Both the position numbers and the translations under genes were made by a program. This document shows positions 24,155 through 42,247 of a DNA stretch of 64,000 nt, piece after piece. How positions within the stretch are numbered: the first letter of the stretch is position 1; each line of letters starts with the position of its first letter. The stretch is from Rhodanobacter sp. B04 (GTDB lineage Bacteria > Pseudomonadota > Gammaproteobacteria > Xanthomonadales > Rhodanobacteraceae): positions 496,001 to 560,000 of the forward strand of contig NZ_MUNV01000005.1 of NCBI RefSeq assembly GCF_002001125.1. The letters are read 5' to 3'. The notes beneath the pieces were generated by a model that searched no databases, had not been told where the DNA came from, and was given only the letters and a program-made list of their open reading frames with translations.

Positions 24155-25507
24155 TTACCCCTTGCCACCTGCACCAACCATCGTTTCGATTTCGCACTTT
24201 GCCTGCAGATTGGCGACGCCCTGGGCAGCACCCGTGTCACCCAATACGGCCAGCACCATGACATCCGCACGCCGATCGATGGCGATGGTCTCCTGCCCGA
24301 ATTCGTCGAACTGCGAAATCCCGAACGTCATCAGGTACTGCTTGGGAATGAGATGCGCATTGAACTTCCAGCGCACGACCACGACATCGCCCTCTTCATG
24401 GTGGAATGCCTCTGCGCGCTCCAGGAACGTGTTGGTGCTGTAAACCAGTTCGCCTTCGGGCGTACGGATCAGCATGCCGAAAATGACGCGACCCAAGGGA
24501 GACTTGAACACGTACTTGACCAGGAACTCCACGGGTTGCCCCGGAAACAGCATCGGCACACCCGACTGCCCCACCACATGAAAATCGGCCAGCATCGCCT
24601 TGCCATTGCCTACGCGGATCTCGTCGCGGTTATAGCCACTGCGCTGCGAGAGCACATCAGCATTGCCGGAAGCCAGCAGCTCGGTGACCGCATCGTCGGC
24701 CGTCTCACCCAGCACCTTGATCGCCGCTTTGCCTGCTGGCTCTGCCACATGCGACCCGAAGATCAGCTGCAGATAGTCGGAGATGGCGCCACGCACCGGT
24801 CCGTCGTATACCTTGCTGCCGGCATTGATCACCACGCCGCGGCTGCACATGCGCTCCACCGCATCAGTGGAGTGGGTGACCAGCAGCAGCGTGCTGCCAG
24901 CCTCCTGCAACTCCTGAATGCGCCGATGGCATTTGCGCTGGAAATACGCGTCGCCCACCGCCAGCGCCTCGTCCACCACCAGCACGTCGGGTTCGACCGC
25001 CACCGCCACGGCAAACGCCAACCGCACGAACATGCCGCTTGAATAGGTCTTGACCGGCTGGTGCACGAAGTCGCCGATCTCGGCGAAGGCGAGGATCGAA
25101 TCGAGCTTGGCATCGACCTGGGTGCGGCCCATGCCCAGCAAGCCGGCTTTCAGGTAGACGTTTTCCAGCCCGGTGAATTCCGGATTGAAGCCTGCACCCA
25201 GCTCAAGCAGGCCGGCCACCCGCGCGTTGACCTCGATCTCGCCGATGGTCGGTTCGATCAGCCCGCAGATCATCTGCAGCAAGGTGGACTTGCCCGAACC
25301 GTTCTTGCCGATGATGCCGATCGTCTCGCCCGGCCACACTTCCAGGTCGAAATCACGCAGTGCCCAGAATTCCTTGGCATAGGTCTTACGGCCCAGCATC
25401 TGCAGCAGCCGGTGATGCGGCTTGGCATAGCCCAGATAGCGCTTGCCGATGCCCTTGGCGCGGATCAGCGGACCCGTGCGGCCCGCCCGGATGATTTCAG
25501 AGGACAT
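24155..25507 (-). CDS. wzt: O-antigen ABC exporter ATP-binding subunit, copy 1
   Basis: Wzt powers export of an undecaprenyl-linked polymer across the inner membrane with Wzm. The 450-residue protein has Walker A GKNGSGKST (67-75), the ABC signature YSSGM (155-159) and Walker B ending in Asp179-Glu180 (VLVVDEALAVGD). After the ATPase comes a C-terminal beta domain (~290-440, VEFLVKYVFKSPLGRVIFGM) of the kind that, in E. coli O9a Wzt, recognises the capped non-reducing end of the glycan. ATG 25507 has AGGA upstream and overlaps wzm by 11 bp, exactly as in the second pair at 39211-39221. It is only moderately similar to copy 2, mainly in the ATPase. Confidence 0.93.
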   Translation of the reverse strand: MSSEIIRAGRTGPLIRAKGIGKRYLGYAKPHHRLLQMLGRKTYAKEFWALRDFDLEVWPGETIGIIGKNGSGKSTLLQMICGLIEPTIGEIEVNARVAGLLELGAGFNPEFTGLENVYLKAGLLGMGRTQVDAKLDSILAFAEIGDFVHQPVKTYSSGMFVRLAFAVAVAVEPDVLVVDEALAVGDAYFQRKCHRRIQELQEAGSTLLLVTHSTDAVERMCSRGVVINAGSKVYDGPVRGAISDYLQLIFGSHVAEPAGKAAIKVLGETADDAVTELLASGNADVLSQRSGYNRDEIRVGNGKAMLADFHVVGQSGVPMLFPGQPVEFLVKYVFKSPLGRVIFGMLIRTPEGELVYSTNTFLERAEAFHHEEGDVVVVRWKFNAHLIPKQYLMTFGISQFDEFGQETIAIDRRADVMVLAVLGDTGAAQGVANLQAKCEIETMVGAGGKG

Positions 25508-26315
25508 CGATGAATCCTGCACGGGTACGCTGGAACCAGGCATAGGTCAGCCAACAGGCCAGCAACGCACCGGCGGTATAGAGTGCAAGTCCCGACCAGT
25601 CCGGCAGGTGACCCCACAGCAGCACCTCGCGCGCCTGCACGATCAGGAACGTCAGCGGATTGAAATGCATGACCGCCTGCATCTTCGGCGACAGATGATC
25701 CATCGGGAAAAACACCGGCGCCGTATAAAGCAGGGCAATCACGATCAGGCTGGTCATCTGTCCCACGTCACGCACGTAGACGCCAAGCGACGCGAGCAGC
25801 CATCCTGCGGCCGTGGCGATCAGTATCAACGGCAGGAACACCAGCGGAAACAGCAGGAAGGTCGCCGCGATGTGTCCGTTGAAGATCAGCGAAAACGCGG
25901 CGAGGATCACCAGGCTTGCCAGTGCGTGATACATCGACGTGAGGCTGGAAACCCACGGCAGGATTTCCAGCGGAAAGATCACCTTGGTGACGTAGTTGGC
26001 GTTGTCCGTCACCAGCTGGCTGCCGCGCGTGATGCATTCACCGAACATCGCATGCACGATCAGGCCTGCGAACAACGCCGTGGCGTACTGCCCCTTGCCG
26101 GTATCCGTCGCACCCCAGCGGGCATGGAAGATTTCCGTGAAGAACAGGGTATAGATCCCGAGCATGAACAGCGGGCTGATGTACGACCAGGCCAACCCGA
26201 ACAACGAGCCCTTGTAGCGCCCGATGACGTCCTTGCGCGTCAGCTGCAGGATCAGCTCGCGATGCTTCCACGTACTGCGCACGAGTGCGGCCGGCGAGAT
26301 GGCATGCCTCGGCAT
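25497..26315 (-). CDS. wzm: O-antigen ABC exporter permease, copy 1
   Basis: Wzm is the membrane subunit forming the polysaccharide channel. This 272-residue protein has the ABC-2 permease layout: an N-terminal amphipathic part (RKDVIGRYKGSLFGLAWSYI) and six hydrophobic segments. Typical stretches are FAGLIVHAMFGECITRG and NPLTFLIVQAREVLLWG. It starts at ATG 26315, 40 bp after the end of the metB-type gene on the same strand, so it may be transcribed from the promoter of that gene. It ends in ...DVL overlapping the wzt start, like copy 2. Confidence 0.93.
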   Translation of the reverse strand: MPRHAISPAALVRSTWKHRELILQLTRKDVIGRYKGSLFGLAWSYISPLFMLGIYTLFFTEIFHARWGATDTGKGQYATALFAGLIVHAMFGECITRGSQLVTDNANYVTKVIFPLEILPWVSSLTSMYHALASLVILAAFSLIFNGHIAATFLLFPLVFLPLILIATAAGWLLASLGVYVRDVGQMTSLIVIALLYTAPVFFPMDHLSPKMQAVMHFNPLTFLIVQAREVLLWGHLPDWSGLALYTAGALLACWLTYAWFQRTRAGFIDVL

Positions 26316-26355
26316 CAAACGTACCCGTAACCCGAAACCAGCGACAGCCAGCGCA

Positions 26356-27746: not shown

Positions 27747-30158
27747 ATGAGCGATCCCCTGAACGACTCCACGCCCCCGGGCAAGTTTGAAGGCGTGGTG
27801 GACGACCTGAACGGCCATGTGCTGCGGGGATGGGCCTGCAGTCACGACGAAACGCAGTCGCAGTTGCGCATCGAGGTACATGCTGACGGTGCTCTGCTCG
27901 GCCACGGCATGGCCACGATGTTCCGCGCCGATCTGGCCATGGCCGGCAAGGGCGACGGTCATTGCGCCTTTGCCATCGGGCTCGAGCCGCTTCCGCCTGC
28001 CGGCACCGTGCTTGTGGTCACTGCCATGGGCAGCGACGGCAGCCGGTATCGCGTCGGCAGTCCGTATGTCATGCCCGCCCACGATCCGGCCATTGCCCGC
28101 TCAAACGGCACCGATGTGCTGCCGCTGCCGATAGGCAGTGCACGCCTGCAGGGCTCGCTGGATCAATGCGGCCCGGAGCGCATGCATGGCTGGGTGCGCC
28201 GTCTGGATGGCCAGCAGGTGTCGCCGACCCTGTCGCTGCACGAGGGCGGACGCGAGTGGCTGCGCTTCGACGCCAACCAGTGGCGTGCCGACCTCTCCGA
28301 GCTGCATCAAGGCGATGGCTGCTGCGGCTTCGATGTCGCGCTGCCCGACGGACTTCGCGACGACAACTCGCACGAGCTGGAACTGCGCATCGCCGACGAC
28401 CACGGGACTCTGCTGAGCATCCCGTTTCGTGTCCACCTGCCCTCCGCGGCAGCGAACCGCACGCCCGGAACGGCCGCCGCACCGGCACCGCTGCAGCGCA
28501 GTACCGACAGCAGCATCACGCTTTCGGTGATCGTGAATTTCTACAACATGCAGCGCGAGGCGGCACGCACGCTGGCCTCGCTCGGCAGCGGCTACCAGCA
28601 GGGCCATGGCGACTTCGACTACGAGGTGCTGTGCATCGACAACGGCTCCGACCCGCCGCTCGATGCGGAGTGGATCGCCAGCTTCGGCCCGCAGTTCCGC
28701 CTGGTCCGCCCCAGCCGCAGGCTGGCCTCGCCATGCGCCGCGCTCAACGAAGCCGCGCTGATGGCCCGCGGCAAATACCTGGCGGTGATGATCGACGGTG
28801 CGCACGTGCTCTCGCCCGGCGTGTTCCGCGAGGCCGCGCTGGCCTGGCAGGAAAACCCTGATTCGGTGGTGGCCCTGCGCCAGTGGTTCGTCGGTGGCGA
28901 CCAGCGCTGGCTGACCCTGGTCGGCTACACGCGCGAACAGGAGGACCTGCTGTTCGAGCGCATCCGCTGGCCGGTCAACGGCTACGACCTGTTCCGCATC
29001 GGTTCCCCGATGAGCGACAACCCCGAACCGTGGTTCGACGGCATCACCGAGACCAACTGCCTGATGCTGCCGACGGCGCTCTACGATCGCATCGGCGGTT
29101 TCGACGAGGGCTTCGACCAGGCCGGGGGCGGGTTTGCCAACCTGGACCTCTGGCGTCGCGCCAGCACTGTCGCGACCGGGCCGCTGGTGGCGCTGGTGGG
29201 CGAGGCCAGCTTCCACCAGTTCCATGGCGGCACCACCACCAACGTCGACGACATCGAGAAGGACGTCCGCGTGCGTGCGTACGCGAACGCCTACCGCAGC
29301 TTGCGCGGCGAGAGCTTCGTGCGGGTCGAGCGCAACCATCTGAGTTTCCGCGGCCGGATGCCCTCGGAGTTCGCCACGGGCACGCGCCAGCGCACGCTGA
29401 TGCCGATGCATCTGGGCATCACCGGACAGGTGCGGCCCGGCCGCTTGTCCGCGCAGTTCGACGACGGCGCGCAGTCGTATCTGATGTCGGTCTACGCCGA
29501 ATGCGGTTTGCGCCACGATGTCCGTTGGCTGGGCCTGCCCACCGGGGTGGCGCCGGCCGACCTGGTCAGCCTTCAGGAAATCATCCACCAGGTCCGGCCC
29601 GACGCGATCATCAGTGTGGGAACCGAGCGCGGGCTGGTCGGCTTCGTCGACAGCACGGCGCATGCGGTCGGCATCGACGGCGCACGCATCCTGCATCTGG
29701 CTCACGCCGAAGCAGCTGCGCCGCACTCGGCGCGGATCACGCCGCTGCATGGCGCGCCGGACGATCCGTCAAGCGCCGCGGCTGCGCGCAACTGGGCTGC
29801 CACCGCCGAGATGGTGCTGGTGCTGCTCGATGTCAGCGGCATGGAGGATGTCTCGCCAGCAACGCTGCAGGCCTGGGGCCGGCTCGTCTCGCACCGTTCC
29901 TACCTGGTCTGCCTGGGCAGCGTGTTCGGACAACCCTGGCTCGGTTATTCGAGCCGCCAGCATTTCAAGGCGATCCGCGAGTTCACTGCCGGCGACTCGC
30001 CTTTCGTGGTCGACCGCAGCCTGACCCGCCAGCTGGTCAGCACCAGCCCGTTCGGCTACCTGCGCAAGGTGGGCGGGATCACCAGCGCAGCCAGCTACGA
30101 CGACGCACTCGACAATCTCGCTCCGGATCAGCCGGCGCTTCTGGAGAATCCACAATGA
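27747..30158 (+). CDS. Two beta repeats + GT2 + CmcI-like domain fusion
   Basis: An 803-residue multidomain protein. Residues 14-~110 and 134-~230 are two divergent copies of a ~120-residue beta module: FEGVVDDLNGHVLRGWA matches LQGSLDQCGPERMHGWV, and FRADLAMAGKGDG matches WRADLSELHQGDG. A GT2 domain follows (~258-520: LSVIVNFYNMQREA, VLCIDNGSDPP, GGFDEGFDQAGGGFANLDLWRRA). The C-terminus (~570-790: VSLQEIIHQVRPDAIISVGTE) resembles the CmcI/cephalosporin-hydroxylase-like methyltransferase fold, without a clear glycine-rich SAM loop. It is divergent from the metB-type gene (224-bp gap) and overlaps the next methyltransferase gene as ATGA. It probably transfers and modifies a sugar of the second polymer. 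Confidence 0.8.
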   Translation: MSDPLNDSTPPGKFEGVVDDLNGHVLRGWACSHDETQSQLRIEVHADGALLGHGMATMFRADLAMAGKGDGHCAFAIGLEPLPPAGTVLVVTAMGSDGSRYRVGSPYVMPAHDPAIARSNGTDVLPLPIGSARLQGSLDQCGPERMHGWVRRLDGQQVSPTLSLHEGGREWLRFDANQWRADLSELHQGDGCCGFDVALPDGLRDDNSHELELRIADDHGTLLSIPFRVHLPSAAANRTPGTAAAPAPLQRSTDSSITLSVIVNFYNMQREAARTLASLGSGYQQGHGDFDYEVLCIDNGSDPPLDAEWIASFGPQFRLVRPSRRLASPCAALNEAALMARGKYLAVMIDGAHVLSPGVFREAALAWQENPDSVVALRQWFVGGDQRWLTLVGYTREQEDLLFERIRWPVNGYDLFRIGSPMSDNPEPWFDGITETNCLMLPTALYDRIGGFDEGFDQAGGGFANLDLWRRASTVATGPLVALVGEASFHQFHGGTTTNVDDIEKDVRVRAYANAYRSLRGESFVRVERNHLSFRGRMPSEFATGTRQRTLMPMHLGITGQVRPGRLSAQFDDGAQSYLMSVYAECGLRHDVRWLGLPTGVAPADLVSLQEIIHQVRPDAIISVGTERGLVGFVDSTAHAVGIDGARILHLAHAEAAAPHSARITPLHGAPDDPSSAAAARNWAATAEMVLVLLDVSGMEDVSPATLQAWGRLVSHRSYLVCLGSVFGQPWLGYSSRQHFKAIREFTAGDSPFVVDRSLTRQLVSTSPFGYLRKVGGITSAASYDDALDNLAPDQPALLENPQ

Positions 30159-31051
30159 ACCGCTTCTGGCCCCGCTACATCAGCCCATTGTTCGAACTCG
30201 TGCAACCGAAGCGGATCATGGAGATCGGCGCCGAATTCGGCTGGAACACCCGCCACGTGCTGGCCTATTGCCGCGCCCACGGTGCCCACGCCGACATCAT
30301 CGACCCGGCGCCGCTGCCGGCCCTGATGCACGAACTGGCGCAATTCGGCCCCGCCGAATACCGCTTCCTGCCGCTGAAGAGCATCGCCGCGATCCCGCAG
30401 CTGGAAGCCCCGGACCTGGTACTGCTCGATGGCGACCACAACTGGGCCACCGTGTTCCATGAACTCAACCTGCTGCAGGCGCGTGCGGAGAAGGCCGGCC
30501 AGGCGCCGCCGATCGTGCTGTCGCACGATGTGGCGTGGCCCTACGCCCGCCGCGACATGTATTACAACCCGGACGACCTGGACGGCTGGCAGAAGCACGC
30601 CTACAGCTACAAGGGCATGCTGCCGGGCCAGTCCGAACTGGACGAGCAGGGCGTGAACGGCTGGCTGGCCAATGCGATGCACGAGGGCGGCCCGCGCAAC
30701 GGCGTGCTTACCGCGATCGAGGACTATATCGCCAGCGCCGGCATCGAGTTTACTTTCCGCAAGCTGCCCTTCTTCAACGGGCTGGGCATCCTGGTGCCCG
30801 CGGCGCGGATGACGCCTGCGCTGCAGGCGCTGATCGACAGCTTCTTCACCGCGCAAAGCCTGCTGCAGGCCTGCGAGGCGCTGGAGGCGGACGGCATGCA
30901 GTTGCGCGGCATGCTGGGCCGAACCGAGACCTGCCTGACCAAACGGACCGAAGCGTTGCAGCGCGCCCGCGAGATCATCGAGGCGCAGCGGCAGGAAATC
31001 GCCAGGCTGCAGCACGGGAACGCCACCGGCGCCCTGGCGGGTCGTGCGTAG
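30155..31051 (+). CDS. Class I SAM-dependent methyltransferase with C-terminal coiled coil
   Basis: The 298-residue protein has an N-terminal Rossmann-type methyltransferase domain: motif I RIMEIGAEFGWNTRHVLAY (about 20-38), PDLVLLDGDHNWATVFHELN (motif II with the metal-type DGDH found in related small-molecule and glycan methyltransferases) and VLSHDVAWPYARRD. The last ~50 residues (TKRTEALQRAREIIEAQRQE) are strongly helical. Its ATG overlaps the stop of the upstream GT2/CmcI-like gene (ATGA), so the two are made together. The gene converges on the dioxygenase gene with 118 bp between. It is likely a sugar O-methyltransferase of the glycan locus; the acceptor is not known. Confidence 0.78.
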   Translation: MNRFWPRYISPLFELVQPKRIMEIGAEFGWNTRHVLAYCRAHGAHADIIDPAPLPALMHELAQFGPAEYRFLPLKSIAAIPQLEAPDLVLLDGDHNWATVFHELNLLQARAEKAGQAPPIVLSHDVAWPYARRDMYYNPDDLDGWQKHAYSYKGMLPGQSELDEQGVNGWLANAMHEGGPRNGVLTAIEDYIASAGIEFTFRKLPFFNGLGILVPAARMTPALQALIDSFFTAQSLLQACEALEADGMQLRGMLGRTETCLTKRTEALQRAREIIEAQRQEIARLQHGNATGALAGRA

Positions 31052-33291: not shown

Positions 33292-34025
33292 GCCAGACGC
33301 CTCATCTGCTCCAGCACCAGCGCGCCATAGGCCGCATTGGCATGGGCACCGTCGCCATAGTACGGCTCGCGCATGAACCCGGTGTCGTCGACGCTCTCGG
33401 GCGGGCACGGCACGAAGGTGACATCGGCACCATCGCACCCTTCGCGGACGATCTGCGAATGCAGGCGCCACAGCTTGTAGCGCAATGGCGCCGGCGAGAT
33501 CTCACGGCACATGCCGGGGAACATGCCCCATGGCACGTCAGCATGCATGCGCACGCCGTCCGCATACGGCGGCGGCGACTCGAGATGGAACATCGGGCCA
33601 CTGCAGAGCCGGCGTATCTGCAGCATCAACGCCAGATATTCGGTCATCAACGATGCCAGCACGCTACGCACCGCCGACGCCGGCAGCAATTCGGCGGCAG
33701 GATCCAGCGGCAGCTCCGGCCGGGCCGGCGACACGAAATCGAAACGCCGCGGGTGTACAAGCATGCCGAGCACGCCGTGCGCCGCCCCGCCGACCATCGA
33801 GAACACCGGCCCGCGATGCTGCTGCAGTTGCTGTTCCAGTGACGGCGTGAACCGCGGCGCATCACCATCGTGCAGGATCGCGCCAGGCATCTCCCAGAAA
33901 TTCAGCGCGGTCAGCGGAATGCCCGCCGCTTCGGCAGCACGGGCCACGCACGCCACGTGGCTGTGGCCGATGCACAGCAGCGGGCCCGGTTTGCCGGCCC
34001 TGGGATTCAACCAGCCCATCCTCAT
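33288..34025 (-). CDS. Small SGNH-like protein of the glycan operon
   Basis: The 245-residue protein begins with a short strand and GHSH motif (LLCIGHSHVACVARAAEAAG, residues 17-36) and ends with YYGDGAHANAAYGALVLEQM, where Asp225 and His228 resemble the DxxH block of SGNH hydrolases. The usual catalytic Ser would be Ser22 in GHSH. The match is loose, so the family call is tentative. The ATG at 34025 overlaps the stop of the tandem GT2 gene as ATGA. It is probably a partner of the adjacent GSCFA protein, perhaps for acyl-group transfer. No signal peptide is seen, suggesting it acts in the cytoplasm. Confidence 0.6.
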   Translation of the reverse strand: MRMGWLNPRAGKPGPLLCIGHSHVACVARAAEAAGIPLTALNFWEMPGAILHDGDAPRFTPSLEQQLQQHRGPVFSMVGGAAHGVLGMLVHPRRFDFVSPARPELPLDPAAELLPASAVRSVLASLMTEYLALMLQIRRLCSGPMFHLESPPPYADGVRMHADVPWGMFPGMCREISPAPLRYKLWRLHSQIVREGCDGADVTFVPCPPESVDDTGFMREPYYGDGAHANAAYGALVLEQMRRLA

Positions 34026-36376
34026 GCGAGTGAAGCCCTGACTTCGTGCACCGCCGCGCTGCCTGCCGTCATCGGCGGCACCTCGACCGTGGTCTGTGAC
34101 CATTCACGTGGAGGAAAAGCCAGCGTGAACGGTTCGCCAGCGAGCGTGAGATTGGGGTTGTAGGCCGGGTCGTGATCCAGCAGGCTGCCCCAGCGCCGCT
34201 TCATGAATTCCACTTCACGCGAGAAGCGCGCCCGCTTCTCCGGTGTGTCCTCGCGTCCGCGCGACGCGGACTCGTGATGGTAAAGCTCGGCAAACGGCGT
34301 CCACACGTTGGTGTAGCCGAGTTGCCGCAGCCGCAGGCAGAAATCGATGTCGTTGAAAGCCACCTTCAGCGCAGGGTCCAGGCCTCCGGCCTGCTGGTAG
34401 GTGGCCCGACGCACCATCAGGCAGGCCGCCGTGACCGCGCTCATCGCCTGCGTCAGCTTCGCCCGCGCCATCTGGCCGGCGTAGCCCCGTGGCATGCCGC
34501 TATAGGGATGTGCCGCCACGCCGTGCACGCCAGTGACCACACCGGCGTGCTGGATGGTGTCGTCGGGGTAGTACAGCATGGCGCCGACGGCGCCCACATG
34601 CGGACGCATCGCATGGCTCGCCAGCTCCTCCAGCCAGTCCGGCGTGACCACCTCGATATCGTTGTTGAGCAGACAGATCAGTTCACTCCGGCAGCCGTCA
34701 ACCGCGGCGTTGTTGATGTGCGAAAAATTGAACGGCTGGTCATGCCGCCGCACGCGCACCCTGGGATGGGTCGCCAGCTCGGCCAGATAGGCTATCGATT
34801 CCGGCTCGACCGACTGGTTGTCCACCACGACAATTTCATAGTGCGTGTAAGTGGTCCGCGCGAGGATCGAATCCACGCACTGCCGCAGCAGATCGGCGCG
34901 GTCGCGCGTGGGAATGATGATGCTGACCTGCGGCAACGGATCAGGCAGCGGGTGACGTATCCGGAACACGCCGCAGAGTCCTTCGATCTCCATCACTTGG
35001 GCGGCCTCGCCCAGCCTCGCAAAATGCTCACGCAGCGCACGTCGCCCCGCAGCATGGGCATAATCCTTCTGGTCCACACCCTGTGCAGTCGATCCGGCGA
35101 TCGCCCGCCAGTGGTAGAGCACCGCGGGGACATGACCGATCTGGTCCGTGGTCAGCCGTTCACTGCAGCGCAAGGCCAGATCCCAGTCCTGGCTGCCTTC
35201 CAGCCCTTCACGAAATCCGCCTGCCGCGTTGACCAGCGCACGCGAATAGACGCCCAAATGGCTGACGCAGTTCTGGCCATGCAGCAGGTCGGGATTCCAG
35301 TTCGGTTTGAAATAGGGATCGTAGCGTCGGCCATCGGCATCGATCTTGTCCTCGTCCGAATACACGAACTGCCACTGCGGATGACGATGCAATGCCTCGA
35401 CAATCGTGGCCAGCGCGCAAGGATGCAGCTCGTCATCGTGATCCAGCAAGGCCACGTAGTCGCCCCGCGCCATGGCCAGCGCACTGTTCGACGCGGCCGA
35501 GATATGGCCGTTGCGCTCCCGCCAGACGATCCGGATGCGGGCGTTGCGGCCGGCGTATTCCTCCAGCACGAGCCGCACCTGCGGCTCAGTGGATGCGTCG
35601 TCGGCGACGCACAACTCCCAGTGCGGATAGGACTGCGCAAGCACGCTGTCCAGACAGTGCCGCAACCAGACTTCCGGCGTATTGAACGTGGGCAGCAATA
35701 TCGATATCAGCCCGTCGCCCTGGATCCGTGCCGGCGAAACAGCGTGATCGTAAAGCTTCAGCCAGCGCTCGTAAGTCGGTGCCTTGGAGTCGCGCCGCAC
35801 GTACAGCGCATGCAGCCATGTCGCAAAGGCATGCCGCCCACCGGGCTCTCGCAGCTTTCGCCATGCGTCCAGCTTGAGTCCATGGGTGTCGGCACCCGCC
35901 GCAGCGGCCTCTCGTGTCACGGCCCGCCACATGCGCCAGCTGGCGCCGATGCGCCCCAGCCGCCTGATCTTCAAGTGCTGGGCGTGAAATGTGCACGGCA
36001 TGCTTGCCGGATCAAGTCGCAACCGCCGCACGTCATGCAGGAGCAGCACCACACCCGTGTGGTGCCGTGCGCCCGGCCGTATGAAACCCAGGTGCAGCGA
36101 CCACGACTCATGCATGCCATGTCCGTAGTCGAAGTACAGTACCGGCTCCAGCCGGTCGCCATCGGTATCCTGCAACTCGATGGAAAAGCCATACCAGCCG
36201 GCTTTCAGCGGAAAGCCACCGCCCGCACATTCAAATTTCGGATCGTTGCCGCTGGCGCACCATGTGCCCGGCTCATCGATCACCGGCGTGAGCTGATCCA
36301 GCGGCTGCAGCGTCAGCACGCTGCCAAGCCAACGCGAGCGCAGGTAGTTCCGGAGTGATCGATACGCGGACTGCAT
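34022..36376 (-). CDS. Tandem GT2-GT2 glycosyltransferase
   Basis: A 784-residue protein with an N-terminal beta-rich part (~1-150, GGGFPLKAGWYGFSIELQD), a first GT2 domain (~222-450: ISILLPTFNTPEVWL, VADDASTEP, LLDHDDELHP, YSDEDKID) and a second (~490-720: VSIIIPTRDRADLL, VVVDNQSVEP, LLNNDIEV, FNDIDFCLRLRQLGY). Both domains keep the acidic metal motif, so both are probably active. Such double GT2 enzymes often polymerise alternating linkages. It lies 21 bp after the coiled-coil methyltransferase gene and is coupled to the SGNH-like gene. Confidence 0.88.
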   Translation of the reverse strand: MQSAYRSLRNYLRSRWLGSVLTLQPLDQLTPVIDEPGTWCASGNDPKFECAGGGFPLKAGWYGFSIELQDTDGDRLEPVLYFDYGHGMHESWSLHLGFIRPGARHHTGVVLLLHDVRRLRLDPASMPCTFHAQHLKIRRLGRIGASWRMWRAVTREAAAAGADTHGLKLDAWRKLREPGGRHAFATWLHALYVRRDSKAPTYERWLKLYDHAVSPARIQGDGLISILLPTFNTPEVWLRHCLDSVLAQSYPHWELCVADDASTEPQVRLVLEEYAGRNARIRIVWRERNGHISAASNSALAMARGDYVALLDHDDELHPCALATIVEALHRHPQWQFVYSDEDKIDADGRRYDPYFKPNWNPDLLHGQNCVSHLGVYSRALVNAAGGFREGLEGSQDWDLALRCSERLTTDQIGHVPAVLYHWRAIAGSTAQGVDQKDYAHAAGRRALREHFARLGEAAQVMEIEGLCGVFRIRHPLPDPLPQVSIIIPTRDRADLLRQCVDSILARTTYTHYEIVVVDNQSVEPESIAYLAELATHPRVRVRRHDQPFNFSHINNAAVDGCRSELICLLNNDIEVVTPDWLEELASHAMRPHVGAVGAMLYYPDDTIQHAGVVTGVHGVAAHPYSGMPRGYAGQMARAKLTQAMSAVTAACLMVRRATYQQAGGLDPALKVAFNDIDFCLRLRQLGYTNVWTPFAELYHHESASRGREDTPEKRARFSREVEFMKRRWGSLLDHDPAYNPNLTLAGEPFTLAFPPREWSQTTVEVPPMTAGSAAVHEVRASLA

Positions 36377-36397: not shown

Positions 36398-37858
36398 CTA
36401 GTCCCGTTTGATGAGCCGCTTCAGCAGCGACCAGAAATTGCGTCTCGCCAGCGTGTCGACGCTCTGTTGCAGTTGCTGCAGGTTCCCTTGCAGCGTGGTC
36501 CTGACGTGATCGATTTCCATTGCCAGTTGCTGCTGCATGACCCGCTGCAGCTGGAACTCACGTGCCAGTTGCTGCTGCATGACCCGCTGCAGCTGGAACT
36601 CACGTGCCAGATTCTGCACATCCACGCGCGCATGCGAGAGCTGGCGCATATCGGTCAGGGATGCCGCCTGCTGTTCGAGCAGGTGGCGCAGCAACGGCGC
36701 GCCAATGATCGCCTCGTATTCCACCCGAAGGGTCACCTTCAACGCGGCGCCTTGGGGTCCTGCGTCAAGGGCGCTGCCGATCTCGAACTCGACGTTCGGA
36801 TCGTCATCGAAACTCACCAGACGCAGCGATGACGTACCGGCGGCAGGCAGCAATTCACCGCTGACATGCCCGAGTCGATCGGACAGCCGCGGCAGCTCCT
36901 GCACTGGTGAGTCGTCGCCGAGCTGCAGCGCAACCCGGCCCATGCCATAAATGCCTGGCAGATCGGCCGGATCGAGCCGCAGGTAATCGGGACGAATGCC
37001 GGCCGGCAGCACGAACTGCAGGTCCACCACGCCGTCGACCGCATCGATCGCCTGCGACAGCATGCGGCTGTCGTCGAACGTCTCATCTTGCGCGCGATAA
37101 TAGAGATGGCTGATCACCGGTTGCGGCTCGATCACGCTGGCCTGCACAGGACGATCGTCGGCATCCACCAAGGTGCCCGCCAGCGCCTCGAAGAAGCCGC
37201 GCATCGCCTCCGCGGAACCTCGGGCGTGTTGCATGAAAGCGACAAACGGCGCCGGCACCGCCGCACCCACCGCGACAACACCCAGGCCATGGCTATGCCG
37301 GAAATCGAAGCACGGGTATCGCACCGACAGCTCTTCCAGGAACTGCGCCACGCCGAAGCCGCGCTCGCGCACGGCCGTGTCATGCAGCAGCACCACCGCA
37401 CGGTGGCTGAGCTTCGGCAGCCAGGTCTCGAAATCGTGGCGCACCGCCTCGTAGGTATGCAGCCCATCGATATGCAGCAGGTCGATGCTGCCGTCCTCGA
37501 ATTGCGCAACCGCCTCGTCGAAGGGGCGACGCAACAGTCGAGAGAAATTTTCGTAAAGCGGGTCATGCCGTGCGCGCAAGGCCTGGTACACCTGCTCGCC
37601 GTAATGCAGGGCATGCGCGTCGCCCTGCCAGGTATCCACCGCCGTGCAATGGCAGTCCAGCTGCAGCGCATGCACCGCCTGGCAGAACGCCAGGTAGGAA
37701 TTGCCCGAATGCGTGCCCAGCTCGACCAGCCGGGCCGGCCGCAGCAGATCCACCGCGAGATACGCGAACGGGATGTGGCCGACCCAGCCATACGGCGGCA
37801 TGATCCGCGGCCGCATCAGGATCAGCGGATGGTTCTCCAGCATGAAGTCAGCACTCAT
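36398..37858 (-). CDS. Methyltransferase with C-terminal coiled coil, candidate WbdD-like chain terminator
   Basis: Residues ~15-220 form a class I methyltransferase: LVELGTHSGNSY (44-55) and IDLLHIDGLHTYEAVRHDF (125-143). Residues ~235-390 are beta-rich. Residues ~390-470 form a Gln/Leu-rich coiled coil holding two identical 14-residue units (LAREFQLQRVMQQQ, 417-430 and 431-444), and the protein ends in a basic amphipathic helix (FWSLLKRLIKRD) fit for membrane binding. The gene overlaps wzt copy 2 by 11 bp. Methyltransferase, coiled coil and membrane helix next to Wzt match E. coli WbdD, which caps O9a chains and measures their length, but no WbdD-type kinase domain is seen. Total length 486 residues. 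Confidence 0.75.
   Translation of the reverse strand: MSADFMLENHPLILMRPRIMPPYGWVGHIPFAYLAVDLLRPARLVELGTHSGNSYLAFCQAVHALQLDCHCTAVDTWQGDAHALHYGEQVYQALRARHDPLYENFSRLLRRPFDEAVAQFEDGSIDLLHIDGLHTYEAVRHDFETWLPKLSHRAVVLLHDTAVRERGFGVAQFLEELSVRYPCFDFRHSHGLGVVAVGAAVPAPFVAFMQHARGSAEAMRGFFEALAGTLVDADDRPVQASVIEPQPVISHLYYRAQDETFDDSRMLSQAIDAVDGVVDLQFVLPAGIRPDYLRLDPADLPGIYGMGRVALQLGDDSPVQELPRLSDRLGHVSGELLPAAGTSSLRLVSFDDDPNVEFEIGSALDAGPQGAALKVTLRVEYEAIIGAPLLRHLLEQQAASLTDMRQLSHARVDVQNLAREFQLQRVMQQQLAREFQLQRVMQQQLAMEIDHVRTTLQGNLQQLQQSVDTLARRNFWSLLKRLIKRD
36521..36610. repeat. Perfect 42-bp tandem duplication inside the coiled coil
   Basis: The units at 36521-36562 and 36563-36604 are identical, and six more bases of a third copy follow (36605-36610). 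Forty-two bases is 14 codons, so the frame is kept and the coiled coil grows by exactly two heptads. The absence of silent differences suggests a recent event. Confidence 0.92.
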
Positions 37859-39221
37859 TCGTCACCCGCTCCAGCCGAATGTCCAGCATCGGTATGCCGA
37901 TCAGGCCTGCCACCATGGAACCCCCGGTCGCGGTGAAACGCAACGCCTCATGCATCCAGTGCTGTACCACGTGCTGCTCCTGCGTGCCTTCGGCGGCTCC
38001 CACCGCGATGAAATACTCGCCGGAAATCAGCCGCGGCATCACGAAGCTGAAGCTGGCGTGGAAATGCTGGCCCGCGGCGACCGCGAAGTCACCTTCATGG
38101 CTGAAGTCCGTGTTGTCGCCGAACAGCAGTTGCCCGAGGCGATCCTTCACATAGAAACCGGTTATCACGTTGTCGGTGTCCGCGTCTGCGGCCAGCTCGA
38201 TGCGCAGCATCACGCGCTCGCCGGCCACTACCGCCGCCACGGCCTGTCCATGCTCGTTGCACAGGGCTGCATGGACGATCCGCACCTTGAACTCGCCGAA
38301 ACCGGCCGCGTCGGGGCGGAACGGAAAAATCCGCACGTCGCTGCGCAGGATCGAGCGATCGAACAGCTCCTGCCGTTGATCCACCTGGCGCTCCTGCAGC
38401 GTACGGGACGACTGTGCCGCACGAAGCTGCCGCGACTGGAAGCCGCCCTGCTGCTCGGCCAGCGACGCCTCCATATAAGCCTCCATCACCATGCGGGCGT
38501 CGCCGATGCGCTGCACGCGGCCGTGCTCCAGCCATACCGCGCGGTCGCACAGGCTGGTGATCGCGCTGCCGTCATGGCTGACGAACAGCATGCTGCCGCG
38601 CTTGCGGAACTCGCGCAGATAGCGCATGCACTTCTGCATGAAGAAGGCATCGCCGACCGCCAGCGCCTCGTCGATGATCAGGATGTCGGCGTCGACGTGA
38701 ACCACGACGGCGAACGCCAGGCGCATCACCATGCCGGTCGAGTAATTGCGCACCGGCTGGTCGACGAAATCGCCGATGTCCGCATAGGCGAGGATCGTGT
38801 CGATGCGCGCGTCGACCTCGGCGCGGCTCAGCCCGAGGATCGAGGCATTGAGATACACGTTCTGGCGGCCGGTGAACTCCGGATTGAACCCGCTGCCGAG
38901 TTCCAGCAGTGCAGCCACGCGACCGCGCACGGCGACGCCGCCCTCGCTGGCCTTGAGCGTGCCTGCGATCAGCTGCAGCAGGGTCGACTTGCCGGCGCCA
39001 TTGCGACCGACGATACCCAGGGTTTCACCGCGCCGCACTTCAAAACCGACCTCGCGCAGCGCCCAGAACTCCCGGTAGAAACGCCGACGACCGCCAACCA
39101 GGCTCTGCAGCATGCGGTGCACCGGCTTGTCGTAGAGCTGGTAGCACTTGCCGAGCCCACGCACCTCGATCACCGCATCGCCGGACGATTCCGGCATCGT
39201 CTGGACATCGCTAGAGGACAT
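37848..39221 (-). CDS. wzt: O-antigen ABC exporter ATP-binding subunit, copy 2
   Basis: A 457-residue Wzt with Walker A GRNGAGKST (72-80), signature YSTGM (160-164) and Walker B ending in Asp184-Glu185. The C-terminal domain (~300-457; FKVRIVHAALCNEHGQAVAAV, ITGFYVKDRLGQLLFGDNTDF) is the immunoglobulin-like type that binds the modified terminus of the exported glycan in the E. coli O9a system. It differs clearly from the C-terminus of copy 1, suggesting a different polymer. The ATG at 39221 overlaps the end of wzm by 11 bp, and its own end overlaps the coiled-coil methyltransferase by 11 bp. Confidence 0.93.
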   Translation of the reverse strand: MSSSDVQTMPESSGDAVIEVRGLGKCYQLYDKPVHRMLQSLVGGRRRFYREFWALREVGFEVRRGETLGIVGRNGAGKSTLLQLIAGTLKASEGGVAVRGRVAALLELGSGFNPEFTGRQNVYLNASILGLSRAEVDARIDTILAYADIGDFVDQPVRNYSTGMVMRLAFAVVVHVDADILIIDEALAVGDAFFMQKCMRYLREFRKRGSMLFVSHDGSAITSLCDRAVWLEHGRVQRIGDARMVMEAYMEASLAEQQGGFQSRQLRAAQSSRTLQERQVDQRQELFDRSILRSDVRIFPFRPDAAGFGEFKVRIVHAALCNEHGQAVAAVVAGERVMLRIELAADADTDNVITGFYVKDRLGQLLFGDNTDFSHEGDFAVAAGQHFHASFSFVMPRLISGEYFIAVGAAEGTQEQHVVQHWMHEALRFTATGGSMVAGLIGIPMLDIRLERVTNEC

Positions 39222-40023
39222 CGGCAAACCCATCCCGCGTGCGCTGGAACCAGGCGTAACCGGACAGCAGTACGGCCACTGCGACCACACTATAGATGCC
39301 CAGCGCATGCCAGTCCGGCGACTGGCCGAACAGCACCAGTCGCCGGGTCTGCTCGATCATCAAGGTCAGCGGATTGAAGGCAATCCAGCTGCGATACGGT
39401 TCATGCAGGTTCGATGCAGGATAGAACACCGGGCTCAGGAACATCAGGATCGACGAGATCACGCCAGCGATCTGGGTGACGTCGCGGACAAATACGCCCA
39501 GCGATGCCATCAGCCAGCTCACCCCGCACAGCAACAGCACGTAGGGCGCATAAAGCAGGGGCAGGTACAGCACCGTCGCATGCAGTGCATGTTGCGAGAC
39601 CACCACGAAGATCAGCAGCACCAGCAGGCTGAGCAGTGCATTGAAGAGCGTCGATGCCACCATGACGCAAGGCAGGATCGCCAGCGGAAACACTACCCGC
39701 TTCACCAGGTTGCTCTGCGAGACGATGACGCCCGGGGCACGCGTGATGCATTCGGCCAACAGCGAGTGGACGATCATGCCGCAGAAGATCATCAGCGAAA
39801 AATCGGCACCCGATTCCATGTTCGGCCAGCGCATGCCGAGGAATACGCGGAAAGCCAGGGTATACACCGCCAGCATCAGCAGCGGGTTGAAAAACGACCA
39901 CAGCAGGCCAAGAAAGGAGCCGCTGTAGCGCCCGGCGACATCGCGCTTGGTCAGTTCCCAGAAAACATCCCGCCTGGCCCAGATGCGCCCAAGCAATGAC
40001 ATTCTCGCCACTTCCATCCTCAT
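39211..40023 (-). CDS. wzm: O-antigen ABC exporter permease, copy 2
   Basis: The 270-residue ABC-2 permease has an N-terminal amphipathic segment (TKRDVAGRYSGSFLGLLWSF), six hydrophobic helices and the conserved NPLTLMIEQTRRLVLFG block near the end. Three in-frame ATGs (40023, 40017, 40002) are possible; 40023 has AGGG at good spacing, and 40002 has GGAAG. It is the first gene of a seven-gene minus-strand operon (to 31170) and is divergent from rmlB across 212 bp, which should hold both promoters. Confidence 0.92.
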   Translation of the reverse strand: MRMEVARMSLLGRIWARRDVFWELTKRDVAGRYSGSFLGLLWSFFNPLLMLAVYTLAFRVFLGMRWPNMESGADFSLMIFCGMIVHSLLAECITRAPGVIVSQSNLVKRVVFPLAILPCVMVASTLFNALLSLLVLLIFVVVSQHALHATVLYLPLLYAPYVLLLCGVSWLMASLGVFVRDVTQIAGVISSILMFLSPVFYPASNLHEPYRSWIAFNPLTLMIEQTRRLVLFGQSPDWHALGIYSVVAVAVLLSGYAWFQRTRDGFADVL

Positions 40024-40235
40024 GCCGTGCCCTGTCTGAAGTACTGCTCGACGCTGAAGCGCCACTGACCATCTGTCGTCCGCCAGCCACGCCACACCTC
40101 AAATCCGTATGACCAATCGTGGCAAACTAGCGTTTGATCCGCCGTGCGCATGTCCCGGTTTCCTGACCTGGCGACCAGTCCATCCATCAACCATTCGCAC
40201 CCGAATGTTCGCCATTCGACACTAAAGAAGGACCG

Positions 40236-41306
40236 ATGAACAGCCCGTCACGTCACATCACTTCGCTGCTGGTTACCGGCGGAGCCGGTTTCATCGGCGC
40301 CAATTTCGTGCTGCAGGCCGTCGCGGACGGTCTGCGGGTCATCAATCTGGACAAGCTCACCTACGCCGGCAACCCGGACACGCTGGCTTCGCTGCAGGAC
40401 AACGACCGCCACGTATTCGTCCACGGCGACATCGGCGACCGCGCGCTGGTGGCCAAGCTGCTGGCCGAACACCGGCCGGATGCCATCGTCAATTTCGCTG
40501 CCGAATCGCATGTGGATCGCTCGATCGACGGCCCTGCCGAATTCGTGCAAACCAATGTCGTCGGCACGCTCGCGCTGCTCGAGTGCGCCCGCGATTACTG
40601 GCGCAGCCTTGAAGGCGCTGCGCACGAGGCGTTCCGCTTCCTGCATGTGTCGACCGACGAGGTGTACGGTTCGCTGGGCGCCGAGGGCAAGTTCACCGAG
40701 CAGACCGCCTACGCGCCGAATTCGCCGTATTCCGCCTCCAAGGCCGCCTCCGATCACCTGGTGCGCGCGTTCCAGCACACCTACGGCCTGCCCACGCTGA
40801 CCACCAACTGCTCGAACAATTACGGTCCGTACCAGTTCCCGGAAAAGCTCATTCCGCTGGTGATCCAGAAAGCACTGGCCGGTGAGCCTCTGCCCGTTTA
40901 CGGCGACGGCCGCAACATTCGCGACTGGCTGTTCGTCGGCGACCACTGCAGCGCGATCCGCCGCGTGCTGCAAGCCGGTCGCGTGGGCGAAACCTACAAC
41001 GTCGGCGGCAATGCCGAGCGCGAGAACATCGCCGTGGTGAAAACCATCTGTGCCCTGCTCGACGCGCGCCAGCCGCTGGCCGGTGGACGCCCGCGCGAAT
41101 CGCTGATCACCCATGTCAAGGATCGCCCGGGCCACGACCGTCGTTACGCGATCGATTCCAGCAAACTGCAAGACGAGCTGGGCTGGCAGCCATCGCAGAC
41201 CCTCGAGACCGGCATCGCGCAAACGGTGGACTGGTACCTCGCCAACCAGCCGTGGGTGCAGCGCGTGCTCGACGGCAGTTATCGTATGGAGCGCCTCGGC
41301 GCCTGA
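40236..41306 (+). CDS. rmlB: dTDP-glucose 4,6-dehydratase
   Basis: RmlB performs the second step of dTDP-L-rhamnose synthesis. The 356-residue SDR protein starts with the NAD-binding motif [15 protein letters not shown], contains [14 protein letters not shown], the catalytic block [11 protein letters not shown], the YxxxK pair in [12 protein letters not shown], and [18 protein letters not shown]. It heads the rmlBACD-xanB operon. Its TGA stop (41304-41306) lies inside a 30-bp tandem repeat that separates it from rmlA. Confidence 0.96.
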
Positions 41307-41359
41307 CCGCCGAGATCATCAAGGATTGGCGCCTGAGCGCCGGGACCATCAAGGATTCG
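41300..41359 (+). repeat. 30-bp imperfect tandem repeat carrying the rmlA ribosome-binding site
   Basis: Units 41300-41329 and 41330-41359 match at 26 of 30 bases. Each contains the stop-like CTGA and an AAGGA. The second AAGGA (41351-41355) sits seven bases before the rmlA ATG. The first (41321-41325) sits seven bases before CTG at 41333, in frame with rmlA. The duplication thus copied the rmlB-stop/RBS segment. Confidence 0.85.
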
Positions 41360-41362
41360 CGC

Positions 41363-42247
41363 ATGACCACGAAAGGCATCATCCTCGCCGGTGGCTCCGG
41401 CACCCGGCTGCATCCGATCACCCGTGCGATCAGCAAGCAGCTGCTGCCGGTGTACGACAAGCCGATGATCTACTACCCGCTGGCCACCTTGATGCTGGCC
41501 GGCATCCGCGAAGTGCTGGTGATCAACACGCCGCACGAGCAGGACATGTTCCGGCGCCTGCTCGGCGACGGCTCGCAGTGGGGCATCGACATCCGCTACG
41601 CCGTGCAGCCTTCGCCGGACGGACTGGCGCAGGCCTTCACCATCGGCCGCGATTTCGTCGATGGACAGCCCAGCTGCCTGGTGCTGGGCGACAACATCTT
41701 CTACGGCCACGGCCTGACCGAGCAGCTCAGGCGCGCCGCCGCGCGCGAGCATGGCGCCACCGTGTTCGGCTACTGGGTGAAGGATCCGGAGCGCTACGGC
41801 GTGGCCGAGTTCGACGCTTCCGGCCGCGTGATCGGACTGGAGGAAAAACCCGCGCAGCCGAAATCCAGCTACGCGGTCACCGGCCTGTACTTCTACGACA
41901 GCCGGGTCTGCGACTATGCCGCCGCGCTACGGCCATCTCCACGCGGCGAGCTGGAGATCACCGACCTCAACCGCTGTTACCTCGACGACGGCTCGCTGCA
42001 GCTGGAACGGCTCGGCCGTGGTTTCGCCTGGCTGGATACCGGTACCCACGAGTCGTTGATGGAGGCGGGCAACTACATCCAGACCATCGAGAACCGCCAG
42101 GGCCTCAAGGTGTGCTGCCCGGAGGAGATCGCCTACCTCAACGGCTGGATCGACGCCGAACAGTTGCTGGCGCTGGCTGCCCCGCTGGCCAAGACCGGCT
42201 ACGGCCAGTACCTGCAGCAGCTGACTCGCCAGGGCCACGTGCGATGA
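41363..42247 (+). CDS. rmlA: Glucose-1-phosphate thymidylyltransferase
   Basis: RmlA makes dTDP-glucose from dTTP and glucose-1-phosphate, the first step to dTDP-L-rhamnose. The 294-residue protein opens with the signature [16 protein letters not shown] followed by [48 protein letters not shown] and [16 protein letters not shown] are also typical. ATG 41363 follows AAGGATTCGCGC. The stop overlaps the rmlC start as ATGA. Confidence 0.97.

What the first reader, a model, noticed from the sequence alone, without database searches (positions are those of the whole stretch)
36398..37858. Candidate coiled-coil ruler and cap enzyme with a freshly lengthened ruler
A methyltransferase with a C-terminal coiled coil and a basic amphipathic tail overlaps wzt copy 2. 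In E. coli O9a, WbdD caps the chain and its coiled-coil length sets O-antigen length. Here the coiled coil holds two DNA-identical 14-residue units (42 bp each), adding exactly two heptads. If it works as a ruler, this duplication would be a single-step change of glycan length, and strains could vary in copy number. The lack of a WbdD-type kinase domain would make it a different cap chemistry.
Basis: partly seen in the sequence, partly recalled or inferred. Interest (0 to 1): 0.75.

Follow-up and report, generated by a model that had tools for sequence, protein, structure and literature searches.

The report
Sugar-chain cap enzyme with stretchable ruler
This soil-bacterium gene very probably caps surface sugar chains before export and carries a rod-like ruler; related species have repeatedly lengthened or shortened the rod, mostly in whole helical-repeat steps, giving a natural series for testing whether rod length sets sugar-chain length.

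Summary
The ORF at 36398-37858 (-) encodes 486 aa: a Methyltransf_24 domain, an unnamed ~155-aa middle domain, a helical C-terminus holding two DNA-identical 42-bp units (36521-36604), and a basic tail. It overlaps wzt by 11 nt; no kinase was found. Gene order wzm-wzt-methyltransferase-polymerase matches the E. coli O9 and O8 clusters. Elsewhere this slot holds GT99-headed or sulfotransferase-like proteins, most with the same middle domain, and two loci fuse the methyltransferase-coil to the GT2-GT2 protein. The Wzt carbohydrate-binding domain co-varies with the cap enzyme. I read it as a methyl-type chain terminator of an ABC-exported, probably rhamnose-containing O antigen. It works like WbdD/WsaE but is not detectably homologous to WbdD.

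New is the coil: lengths of 22-200 residues between anchors in 16 homologues, 13 of 16 in two classes modulo 7 (12 of 13 in the first set; the two fused proteins do not fit). Tandem arrays are ~14-fold enriched in these genes, mostly 21/42-bp units. 'Freshly lengthened' is unproven: the sister species has one unit more. The window's own coil shows weak heptad periodicity (p 0.12). Methyl-only capping is already known. No chain-length or strain data; structure prediction was off.

The parts
36398..37858 (-). Chain-terminator candidate, 486 aa: Methyltransf_24 - middle domain - helical coil - basic tail
37376..37726 (-). Methyltransferase domain, residues 45-161 (PF13578, E 2.4e-26)
36668..37138 (-). 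Unnamed middle domain, residues 241-397; no Pfam or NCBIfam match; also found in GT99-headed and sulfotransferase-like proteins of the same slot
36443..36631 (-). Helical coil, about residues 410-472, around the invariant columns D413 and L470/R473 of alignment A1
36563..36604 (-). 42-bp unit 1 (the codon-frame unit LAREFQLQRVMQQQ starts a few bases earlier)
36521..36562 (-). 42-bp unit 2, identical to unit 1
36401..36445 (-). Basic tail (net charge +5 over the last 16 residues), possible membrane contact (inferred)
37848..39308 (-). wzt (copy 2), overlaps the terminator by 11 nt
37896..38303 (-). Wzt_C carbohydrate-binding domain (PF14524, E 3.1e-32), residues 336-471 of the ORF
39211..40095 (-). 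wzm (ABC2_membrane)
34022..36376 (-). 784-aa protein with two GT2 modules, candidate polymerase; its relatives are fused to the methyltransferase-coil in loci L028 and L038
40236..41306 (+). rmlB, dTDP-glucose 4,6-dehydratase
   Evidence: TIGR01181
41252..42247 (+). rmlA (ORF probably starts upstream of the true start codon)
   Evidence: TIGR01207
42636..43733 (+). rmlD
   Evidence: TIGR01214
43751..45163 (+). manC-type mannose-1-phosphate guanylyltransferase/isomerase
   Evidence: TIGR01479

Best explanation
The gene encodes the chain terminator of an ABC-transporter-exported O antigen that probably contains rhamnose. The N-terminal methyltransferase O-methylates the non-reducing end of the growing chain. 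This stops the polymerase (the adjacent GT2-GT2 protein) and creates the tag that the Wzt C-terminal domain reads before export. The middle domain probably binds the glycan. The C-terminal parallel coil, ending in a basic membrane-proximal tail, holds the methyltransferase a fixed distance from the polymerase and membrane, so that only chains long enough to reach it are capped. The coil evolves largely by in-frame tandem duplication and loss of one- or two-heptad units, which changes its length without breaking its pitch. Shown: domains, gene order, fusions, exchange in the slot, Wzt co-variation, mostly heptad-quantised lengths, array enrichment. Inferred: methyl cap, rhamnose substrate, oligomeric coil, membrane contact, ruler effect on chain length (about 2.1 nm per 14-residue unit at a recalled 1.5 A rise per residue).
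For: Order wzm-wzt-MT-coil-GT2GT2 in the close loci and wzm-wzt-methyltransferase-polymerase in E. coli HS (O9) and IAI1 (O8) (the HS protein is WbdD by its PDB matches). GT99-domain proteins in the same slot in L029, L046, L047 and L057. The middle-domain HMM (built from 15 of the 35 proteins) is found in 25 of 35 query-matched proteins, that is 10 of the 20 not used to build it, among them GT99-headed L029/L046/L047 and sulfotransferase-like L030/L045. Fusions to GT2-GT2 in L028 (1291 aa) and L038 (1266 aa) (Pfam on L028). Among loci with Wzm at most 46% identical to the window's, Wzt CBM identity is 30-54% in 14 methyltransferase loci versus 18-24% in 8 others (p 6e-6, not corrected for relatedness). 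rmlB, rmlA, rmlD adjacent. Coil lengths mod 7: 12 of 13 in two classes 3 apart, Monte Carlo p about 1e-5; 10 of 11 distinct lengths, p 2e-4; moduli 4-6 and 8-11 not significant; with three more proteins added later, 13 of 16, p 1e-4, or 11 of 14 distinct lengths, p 1e-3. Arrays: 11 in 35 query-matched genes (68 kb) versus 8 in 719 kb elsewhere; 9 of 11 unit lengths are multiples of 21 bp versus 0 of 8 elsewhere. K. pneumoniae O7 ORF6 (MT-kinase-CBM-coil-GT2-GT2 on a rhamnose-containing polymer) is an experimentally shown terminator (PMC11231755, passages).
Against: The window's own coil has weak 3.5-residue periodicity (p 0.12) and is 24% Gln. No structure could be predicted. The fused proteins L028 and L038 (91 and 73 residues, mod 7 = 0 and 3) fall outside the two length classes and differ by 18; L036 also breaks the rule, after a 60-bp duplication. 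Coil length differs widely between sister species (43 vs 85; 57 vs 71; 22 vs 39), which fits tuning but also weak constraint. The NBD of Wzt is also more similar in methyltransferase loci (55-72% vs 49-53%), so part of the CBM signal may be shared history. Length tests treat related proteins as independent, and the anchors were chosen by me. No LPS data were seen. WsaE methylation was chain-length independent in vitro (PMC2943079, passage).
Confidence: 0.66

Rival explanations
1. It is the chain terminator, but the coil is only an oligomerisation and polymerase-recruitment spacer. Its length drifts neutrally by slippage, limited only by the need to stay in heptad phase.
For: Sister species differ 43 vs 85 and 22 vs 39 residues. 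Tandem arrays are an expected product of slippage in Gln-rich coil DNA. Two fused proteins are not in phase with the rest. In O9a part of the coil is needed for trimer formation and kinase activity (PMC3482155, passages).
Against: In O9a and O12 the coil is reported to determine glycan length (PMC11231755, PMC5082667, passages). Mostly preserved heptad phase suggests a rigid rod, not a loose tether.
Confidence: 0.24
2. The true cap enzyme is another methyltransferase of the cluster (the Methyltransf_24 protein at 30155-31051, or the GT2-RMNT_CmcI protein at 27747-30158), and the 36398 gene modifies internal residues.
For: Both neighbours have methyltransferase domains; relatives of both lie in the stretches of L021-L026 and L033-L036.
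Against: No match to them (E 1e-8) in the fetched stretches of L027, L028, L037-L041 and L049, where wzm-wzt-MT-coil remains (about 20 kb each only). The wzt-overlapping gene sits in the wbdD slot, which GT99 proteins hold in other loci.
Confidence: 0.08
3. The repeat is an incidental low-complexity duplication in a protein unrelated to glycan length.
For: The coil is 24% Gln in the window and repeat-prone.
Against: Arrays of one- or two-heptad units in WIN, L021, L022, L024, L032, L033, L035 and L056, with units closest to their own neighbours in WIN, L022 and L024; lengths mostly quantised mod 7; about 14-fold enrichment in these genes.
Confidence: 0.05

Closest known systems
WbdD of E. coli O9/O9a and O8 (K. 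pneumoniae O3/O5)
   Same: Gene slot (wzm-wzt-wbdD-wbdA), N-terminal methyltransferase, C-terminal coil (literature), Wzt with Wzt_C domain; no kinase matched in the O8-cluster protein.
   Different: Different methyltransferase families (best matches Methyltransf_31/25/11 and 25/11/23 vs Methyltransf_24), no detectable sequence similarity, added middle domain, and by the position of the motif after the coil no ~100-residue C-terminal region; no 21- or 42-bp arrays in the two wbdD genes, one 15-bp array near the 3' end of the O9 gene.
K. pneumoniae O7 ORF6
   Same: Methyltransferase, CBM-like domain, coil, two GT2 modules, rhamnose-containing polymer, ABC exporter (PMC11231755, passages). The L028/L038 fusions resemble this layout.
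   Different: ORF6 has a kinase domain and a methyl-phosphate cap; the window protein has no kinase match and is split from the GT2-GT2 protein. Sequences were not compared here.
WsaE of Geobacillus stearothermophilus
   Same: Methyltransferase plus two rhamnosyltransferase modules, overlapping wzm-wzt-wsaE, rml genes, terminal 2-O-methyl-rhamnose (PMC2943079, passages).
   Different: S-layer glycan of a Gram-positive; no coil was mentioned in the passages seen (not searched for); not compared by sequence.
WbbB of K. pneumoniae O12
   Same: One protein combining terminator and coil (PMC11231755, passages). That its terminator module is GT99 is recalled; GT99-headed proteins occupy the same slot in L029, L046, L047 and L057, with the shared middle domain found in the first three.
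   Different: The cap is a Kdo residue, not methyl; WbbB carries its polymerase modules in the same chain.
E. coli O101/O162 methyltransferase
   Same: One predicted methyltransferase domain plus coil; O-methyl residue needs the intact gene; ruler proposed (PMC13168486, passages).
   Different: Not compared by sequence; polymer of HexNAc sugars.

Membership tests
WbdD family (E. coli O8/O9a) | Detectable sequence similarity to WbdD | tested here: not met
   BLASTP vs O9 WbdD best E 0.15 over 33 residues; hhalign of A1 vs the O8-cluster protein probability 2.5; PDB searches with P0001 and A1 at E 1 list no WbdD chain, while the O9 protein finds 4azs, 4ax8, 4uw0 and 4azw.
WbdD family (E. coli O8/O9a) | Gene slot between wzt and the multi-module polymerase | tested here: met
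WbdD family (E. coli O8/O9a) | Kinase domain (O9a form only) | tested here: not met
   O9 WbdD shows APH/Pkinase matches
Coiled-coil chain terminators of ABC-exported glycans (functional class) | N-terminal cap enzyme domain | tested here: met
   Methyltransf_24; activity not tested
Coiled-coil chain terminators of ABC-exported glycans (functional class) | C-terminal coiled coil | tested here: inconclusive
   3.5 periodicity p 0.12 in the window, p at or below 0.05 in 11 of 14 proteins tested; lengths mostly quantised mod 7; no structure prediction
Coiled-coil chain terminators of ABC-exported glycans (functional class) | Wzt with a C-terminal carbohydrate-binding domain | tested here: met
   Wzt_C E 3.1e-32; co-varies with cap type
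Coiled-coil chain terminators of ABC-exported glycans (functional class) | Terminal modification of the glycan by the enzyme | not testable with these tools
   needs glycan chemistry
Coiled-coil chain terminators of ABC-exported glycans (functional class) | Coil length sets chain length | not testable with these tools
   needs LPS ladders
WsaE-type terminator-polymerase | Methyltransferase fused to two GT2 modules | tested here: not met
   Separate genes in the window; fused in L028 and L038

The most novel reading that the evidence does not exclude
The coil-coding repeats are a digital length register for the cell's surface sugar coat: slippage between 21/42-bp units adds or removes whole heptads of the ruler, so that strains and species switch or evolve O-antigen length in quantised steps. 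The cap enzyme on top can be exchanged (methyl-, Kdo- or sulfo-type) on a shared middle-domain-plus-coil chassis together with the matching Wzt domain.
Probability: 0.28. Interest if true: 0.78.

Novelty: new variant of a known kind. Interest (0 to 1): 0.57.

Why it matters
The ruler model was tested with insertions and truncations in WbdD (PMC5082667, passage). This family offers a natural series (22 to 200 residues between anchors, about 3 to 30 nm if helical) in related soil bacteria whose methyltransferase and middle domains align with few gaps (401 of 408 columns kept), so coil length against LPS length can be measured directly. It also shows a simple evolutionary route, in-frame heptad duplication, for changing a rod without breaking its pitch. 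If DNA-identical units slip within a strain, O-antigen length would be a contingency trait. The exchange of cap domains with matching Wzt domains suggests a modular cap-and-export code, including possible sulfate caps.

Tried and rejected
Rejected: membership in WbdD by homology. Rejected: the repeat as chance (42/42 identity, in frame, enrichment). Not established: that the window coil was lengthened rather than homogenised, because the sister species has 3.3 copies and a coil 14 residues longer. Led nowhere: structure prediction (switched off), so the fold of the coil and of the middle domain could not be checked; NCBIfam gave no family for the protein at E 1e-5; PDB searches gave only weak matches (E 0.25 and above); the promoter/terminator scan was at chance level; the ruler paper PMC4650267 is not held, so its results are taken from other papers. 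Strain-level copy number could not be tested: the genome searches hold one genome per species. Coil periodicity missed p 0.05 in 3 of 14 proteins: the window, L021 and L037. Amphipathic-tail moments were not significant in any of 14. In one search L026 gave no coil output because a search motif missed it; it was measured. L040 and L041 lack a clear N anchor; from a motif they share, their lengths differ by 35, five heptads. L039 and L049 (second middle domain in the way), the proteins without the middle domain and the GT99 and sulfotransferase-like ones were not measured. Unit comparisons against a simple story: L021 and L032 units match their own array only slightly better than other species (35 vs 32-34; 30 vs 29 of 42), and L023 units match L024 better than each other. 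Literature: searches for natural tandem duplication in such rulers, (nothing relevant seen in the listings); for sulfotransferase terminators, (no such case seen in the 12 of 15 listed). K. [quoted passage not shown] Mann et al. 2019 (Glycobiology), a survey of terminators cited in PMC11231755, was not read, so parts of the modular picture may already be in print.

Full report
What is there. The ORF at 37858..36398 (-) codes for 486 aa. Pfam finds Methyltransf_24 at residues 45-161 and nothing else at E 0.01; NCBIfam finds nothing at E 1e-5. Two identical 42-bp units lie at 36521-36604, and TRF gives 2.3 copies. Each unit is 14 codons long. The gene overlaps the wzt ORF by 11 nt; the same 11-nt overlap can be read from the ORF coordinates of L021, L022, L025, L026, L027, L037 and L049. 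Upstream are wzt with a Wzt_C domain and wzm; downstream is a 784-aa protein with two GT2 modules. rmlB, rmlA and rmlD and a manC-type gene are next door, so dTDP-rhamnose and GDP-mannose are likely donors (inference; rmlC was not scanned). Three of the four named relatives found are Rhodanobacter and one is a MAG titled Proteobacteria; the contig lengths of G015, G026 and G042, which share the window's genus, equal those of the three Rhodanobacter records, so the window is taken as Rhodanobacter.

Distribution. With the protein as query, 13 of 45 genomes of the genus, 29 of 233 of the family and 36 of 398 sampled from the order have a match at E 1e-3 or better, the window's own genome included. 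In the genus, 3 of the 13 (G012, G032, G044) match only behind the methyltransferase domain. The profile finds 8 of 369 sampled from the class at E 1e-20, own genome included.

Slot and exchange. Stretches of about 20 kb (L032: 6.6 kb) were examined around the matches. Close loci read wzm-wzt-MT-coil-GT2GT2. E. coli HS reads wzm-wzt-methyltransferase-wbdA with transporter genes annotated as O9 family; the methyltransferase is WbdD by its match to 4azs, 4ax8, 4uw0 and 4azw. E. coli IAI1 reads wzm-wzt-methyltransferase-glycosyltransferase with transporter genes annotated as O8 family; calling that protein O8 WbdD rests on position and literature. L028 and L038 fuse MT-coil to GT2-GT2 (Pfam on L028). 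In L029, L046, L047 and L057 the slot protein begins with Glyco_transf_99, E 4e-47, 1.1e-44, 2.7e-46 and 2.3e-51. In PMC11231755 (passages) the N-terminal GT of WbbB terminates the O12 chain with Kdo; that this module is GT99 is recalled. L045 begins with Sulfotransfer_3 (5.7e-10); L030 and L031 match it only weakly (0.018, 0.015; below cut-off). An HMM of the middle domain, built from 15 close rows, is found in 25 of 35 query-matched proteins (E below 0.01), hence in 10 of the 20 not used to build it: L029, L030, L032, L039, L040, L041, L045, L046, L047, L049. Ten lack it (L042-L044, L050-L056). L031, L048 and L057 were not in that scan.

Cap reader. Compared with the window, Wzt CBM identity among loci whose Wzm is at most 46% identical is 30-54% in 14 methyltransferase loci and 18-24% in 8 others (L029-L031, L045-L048, L057) (Mann-Whitney p 6e-6, not corrected for relatedness). 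The NBD shows a weaker shift in the same direction (55-72% vs 49-53%). L032 and L056 had no Wzt and L044 no usable Wzt or Wzm in the stretch.

The coil. In 13 homologues (window, L021-L026, L032-L037; L032 is cut at its 5' end) the distance from the D413 column to the L470 column is 57, 71, 60, 43, 85, 113, 109, 85, 60, 22, 39, 63 and 151 residues. Modulo 7 these are 1,1,4,1,1,1,4,1,4,1,4,0,4. Twelve of 13 lie in two classes 3 apart (Monte Carlo p about 1e-5 for any such pair of classes); on the 11 distinct lengths, 10 of 11 (p 2e-4); moduli 4-6 and 8-11 give no signal. Adding L027 (200, mod 4) and the two fused proteins L028 (91, mod 0) and L038 (73, mod 3) makes 13 of 16 (p 1e-4), or 11 of 14 distinct lengths (p 1e-3). 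So the rule is strong in the split proteins and not met by the two fused ones. L040 and L041 differ by 35, five heptads. An offset of 3 or 4 exchanges the a and d core positions, as a stutter does (general coiled-coil knowledge). The exception among the split proteins, L036, has a 60-bp duplication; 63 minus 20 is 43, which is class 1. The anchors were chosen by me from invariant columns of alignment A1; for L036 and L037 the N anchor rests on the 34-residue distance from the middle domain. Relatedness was not corrected for.

Arrays. TRF (score 80 or more) on 38 stretches finds 11 arrays in the 35 query-matched genes (68 kb) and 8 in the other 719 kb (gene number). Unit lengths inside: 42 bp seven times, 21 bp twice, 60 and 45 bp once each; outside: 30, 24, 95, 30, 40, 6, 9 and 9. 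Array-bearing genes: 10 of 35, of which L053 and L056 are distant relatives without the middle domain. The two full window units match each other 42/42 but other species at most 34/42. L022 units match 40, 40 and 33 of 42 within their array and 27-30 outside; the five L024 units 30-39 within and 28-30 outside. L021 (35 vs 32-34) and L032 (30 vs 29, first two units) are marginal, L023 units match L024 better (29-30) than each other (23), and L025 and L026 share their units by descent. On the tree of the first 400 residues the window pairs with L021 (57 vs 71), L023 with L024 (43 vs 85), L034 with L035 (22 vs 39), each with strong support. So in several lineages units turn over faster than species split. 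The E. coli O8 and O9 wbdD genes show no 21- or 42-bp array at score 40; the O9 gene has one 15-bp array near its 3' end.

Limits. Periodicity at 3.5 residues is significant at 0.05 in 11 of 14 coils, but not in the window (0.12), L021 (0.10) or L037 (0.085). By hand the window coil reads V414-L417-F421-Q424-Q428-L431-F435-Q438-Q442-L445-I449-V452 as a/d positions, with a stutter near 456-460, hence a Gln-rich core. There is no structure model.

How it most likely works. Methyl capping of the non-reducing end stops the GT2-GT2 polymerase and licenses export through the Wzt C-terminal domain; [quoted passage not shown] The coil separates cap site from polymerase. In WbdD insertions and truncations of the coil shift modal length (PMC5082667, passage), and the O8 WbdD is a simple methyltransferase (PMC3482155, passages). 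WsaE methylates terminal rhamnose in an overlapping wzm-wzt-wsaE cluster, and the review says that a further length factor may be needed because methylation was length-independent in vitro (PMC2943079, passage); a coil could be that factor in the relatives described here (inference).

Verdict. A well-placed chain-terminator candidate of a known functional kind, not a detectable WbdD homologue. The notable part is the repeat-driven, mostly heptad-quantised length series across species.

Noticed in passing
L029 9357-11441, L046 9612-11657, L047 8464-10371, L057 8475-10448: GT99-headed proteins directly after wzt; the middle domain of the window protein was found in L029, L046 and L047 (L057 not scanned for it). 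Suggests exchange of cap enzymes on a shared chassis.
   Followed up: partly
L030 9060-11153, L031 9146-11239, L045 7172-11176: Sulfotransferase-like N-termini (strong only in L045) in the terminator slot, middle domain found in L030 and L045 (L031 not scanned): possible sulfate-capped O antigens.
   Followed up: partly
L028 6901-10776, L038 6913-10713, L045 7172-11176, L048 9560-12997: Slot proteins fused to GT2-GT2; the N-terminal ~380 residues of L048 have no clear Pfam match.
   Followed up: partly
L039 8635-10611 and L049 9240-11408: The middle domain occurs twice in one protein.
   Followed up: no
L042, L050-L055: Methyltransferase proteins with helical-looking C-termini but without the middle domain; several end in a motif like SWRxTKPLRW that also occurs in O8/O9 WbdD.
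   Followed up: no
window 24155-26318: A second wzm/wzt pair; its Wzt_C domain is only 21% identical to that of copy 2, so a second polymer with another cap is possible.
   Followed up: partly
window 30155-31051: Another Methyltransf_24 protein whose C-terminus looks helical, found with the cluster in close relatives.
   Followed up: no
window 41298-41368: 30-bp tandem repeat (2.4 copies) at the rmlB-rmlA junction.
   Followed up: no
L025 13994-16084 and L026 3864-5954: GSCFA and PhyH relatives fused into one 696-aa ORF.
   Followed up: no
L049 3767-4269; L054 8390-8606: Strong tandem arrays outside the terminator gene (95 bp x 5.3; 6 bp x 36).
   Followed up: no
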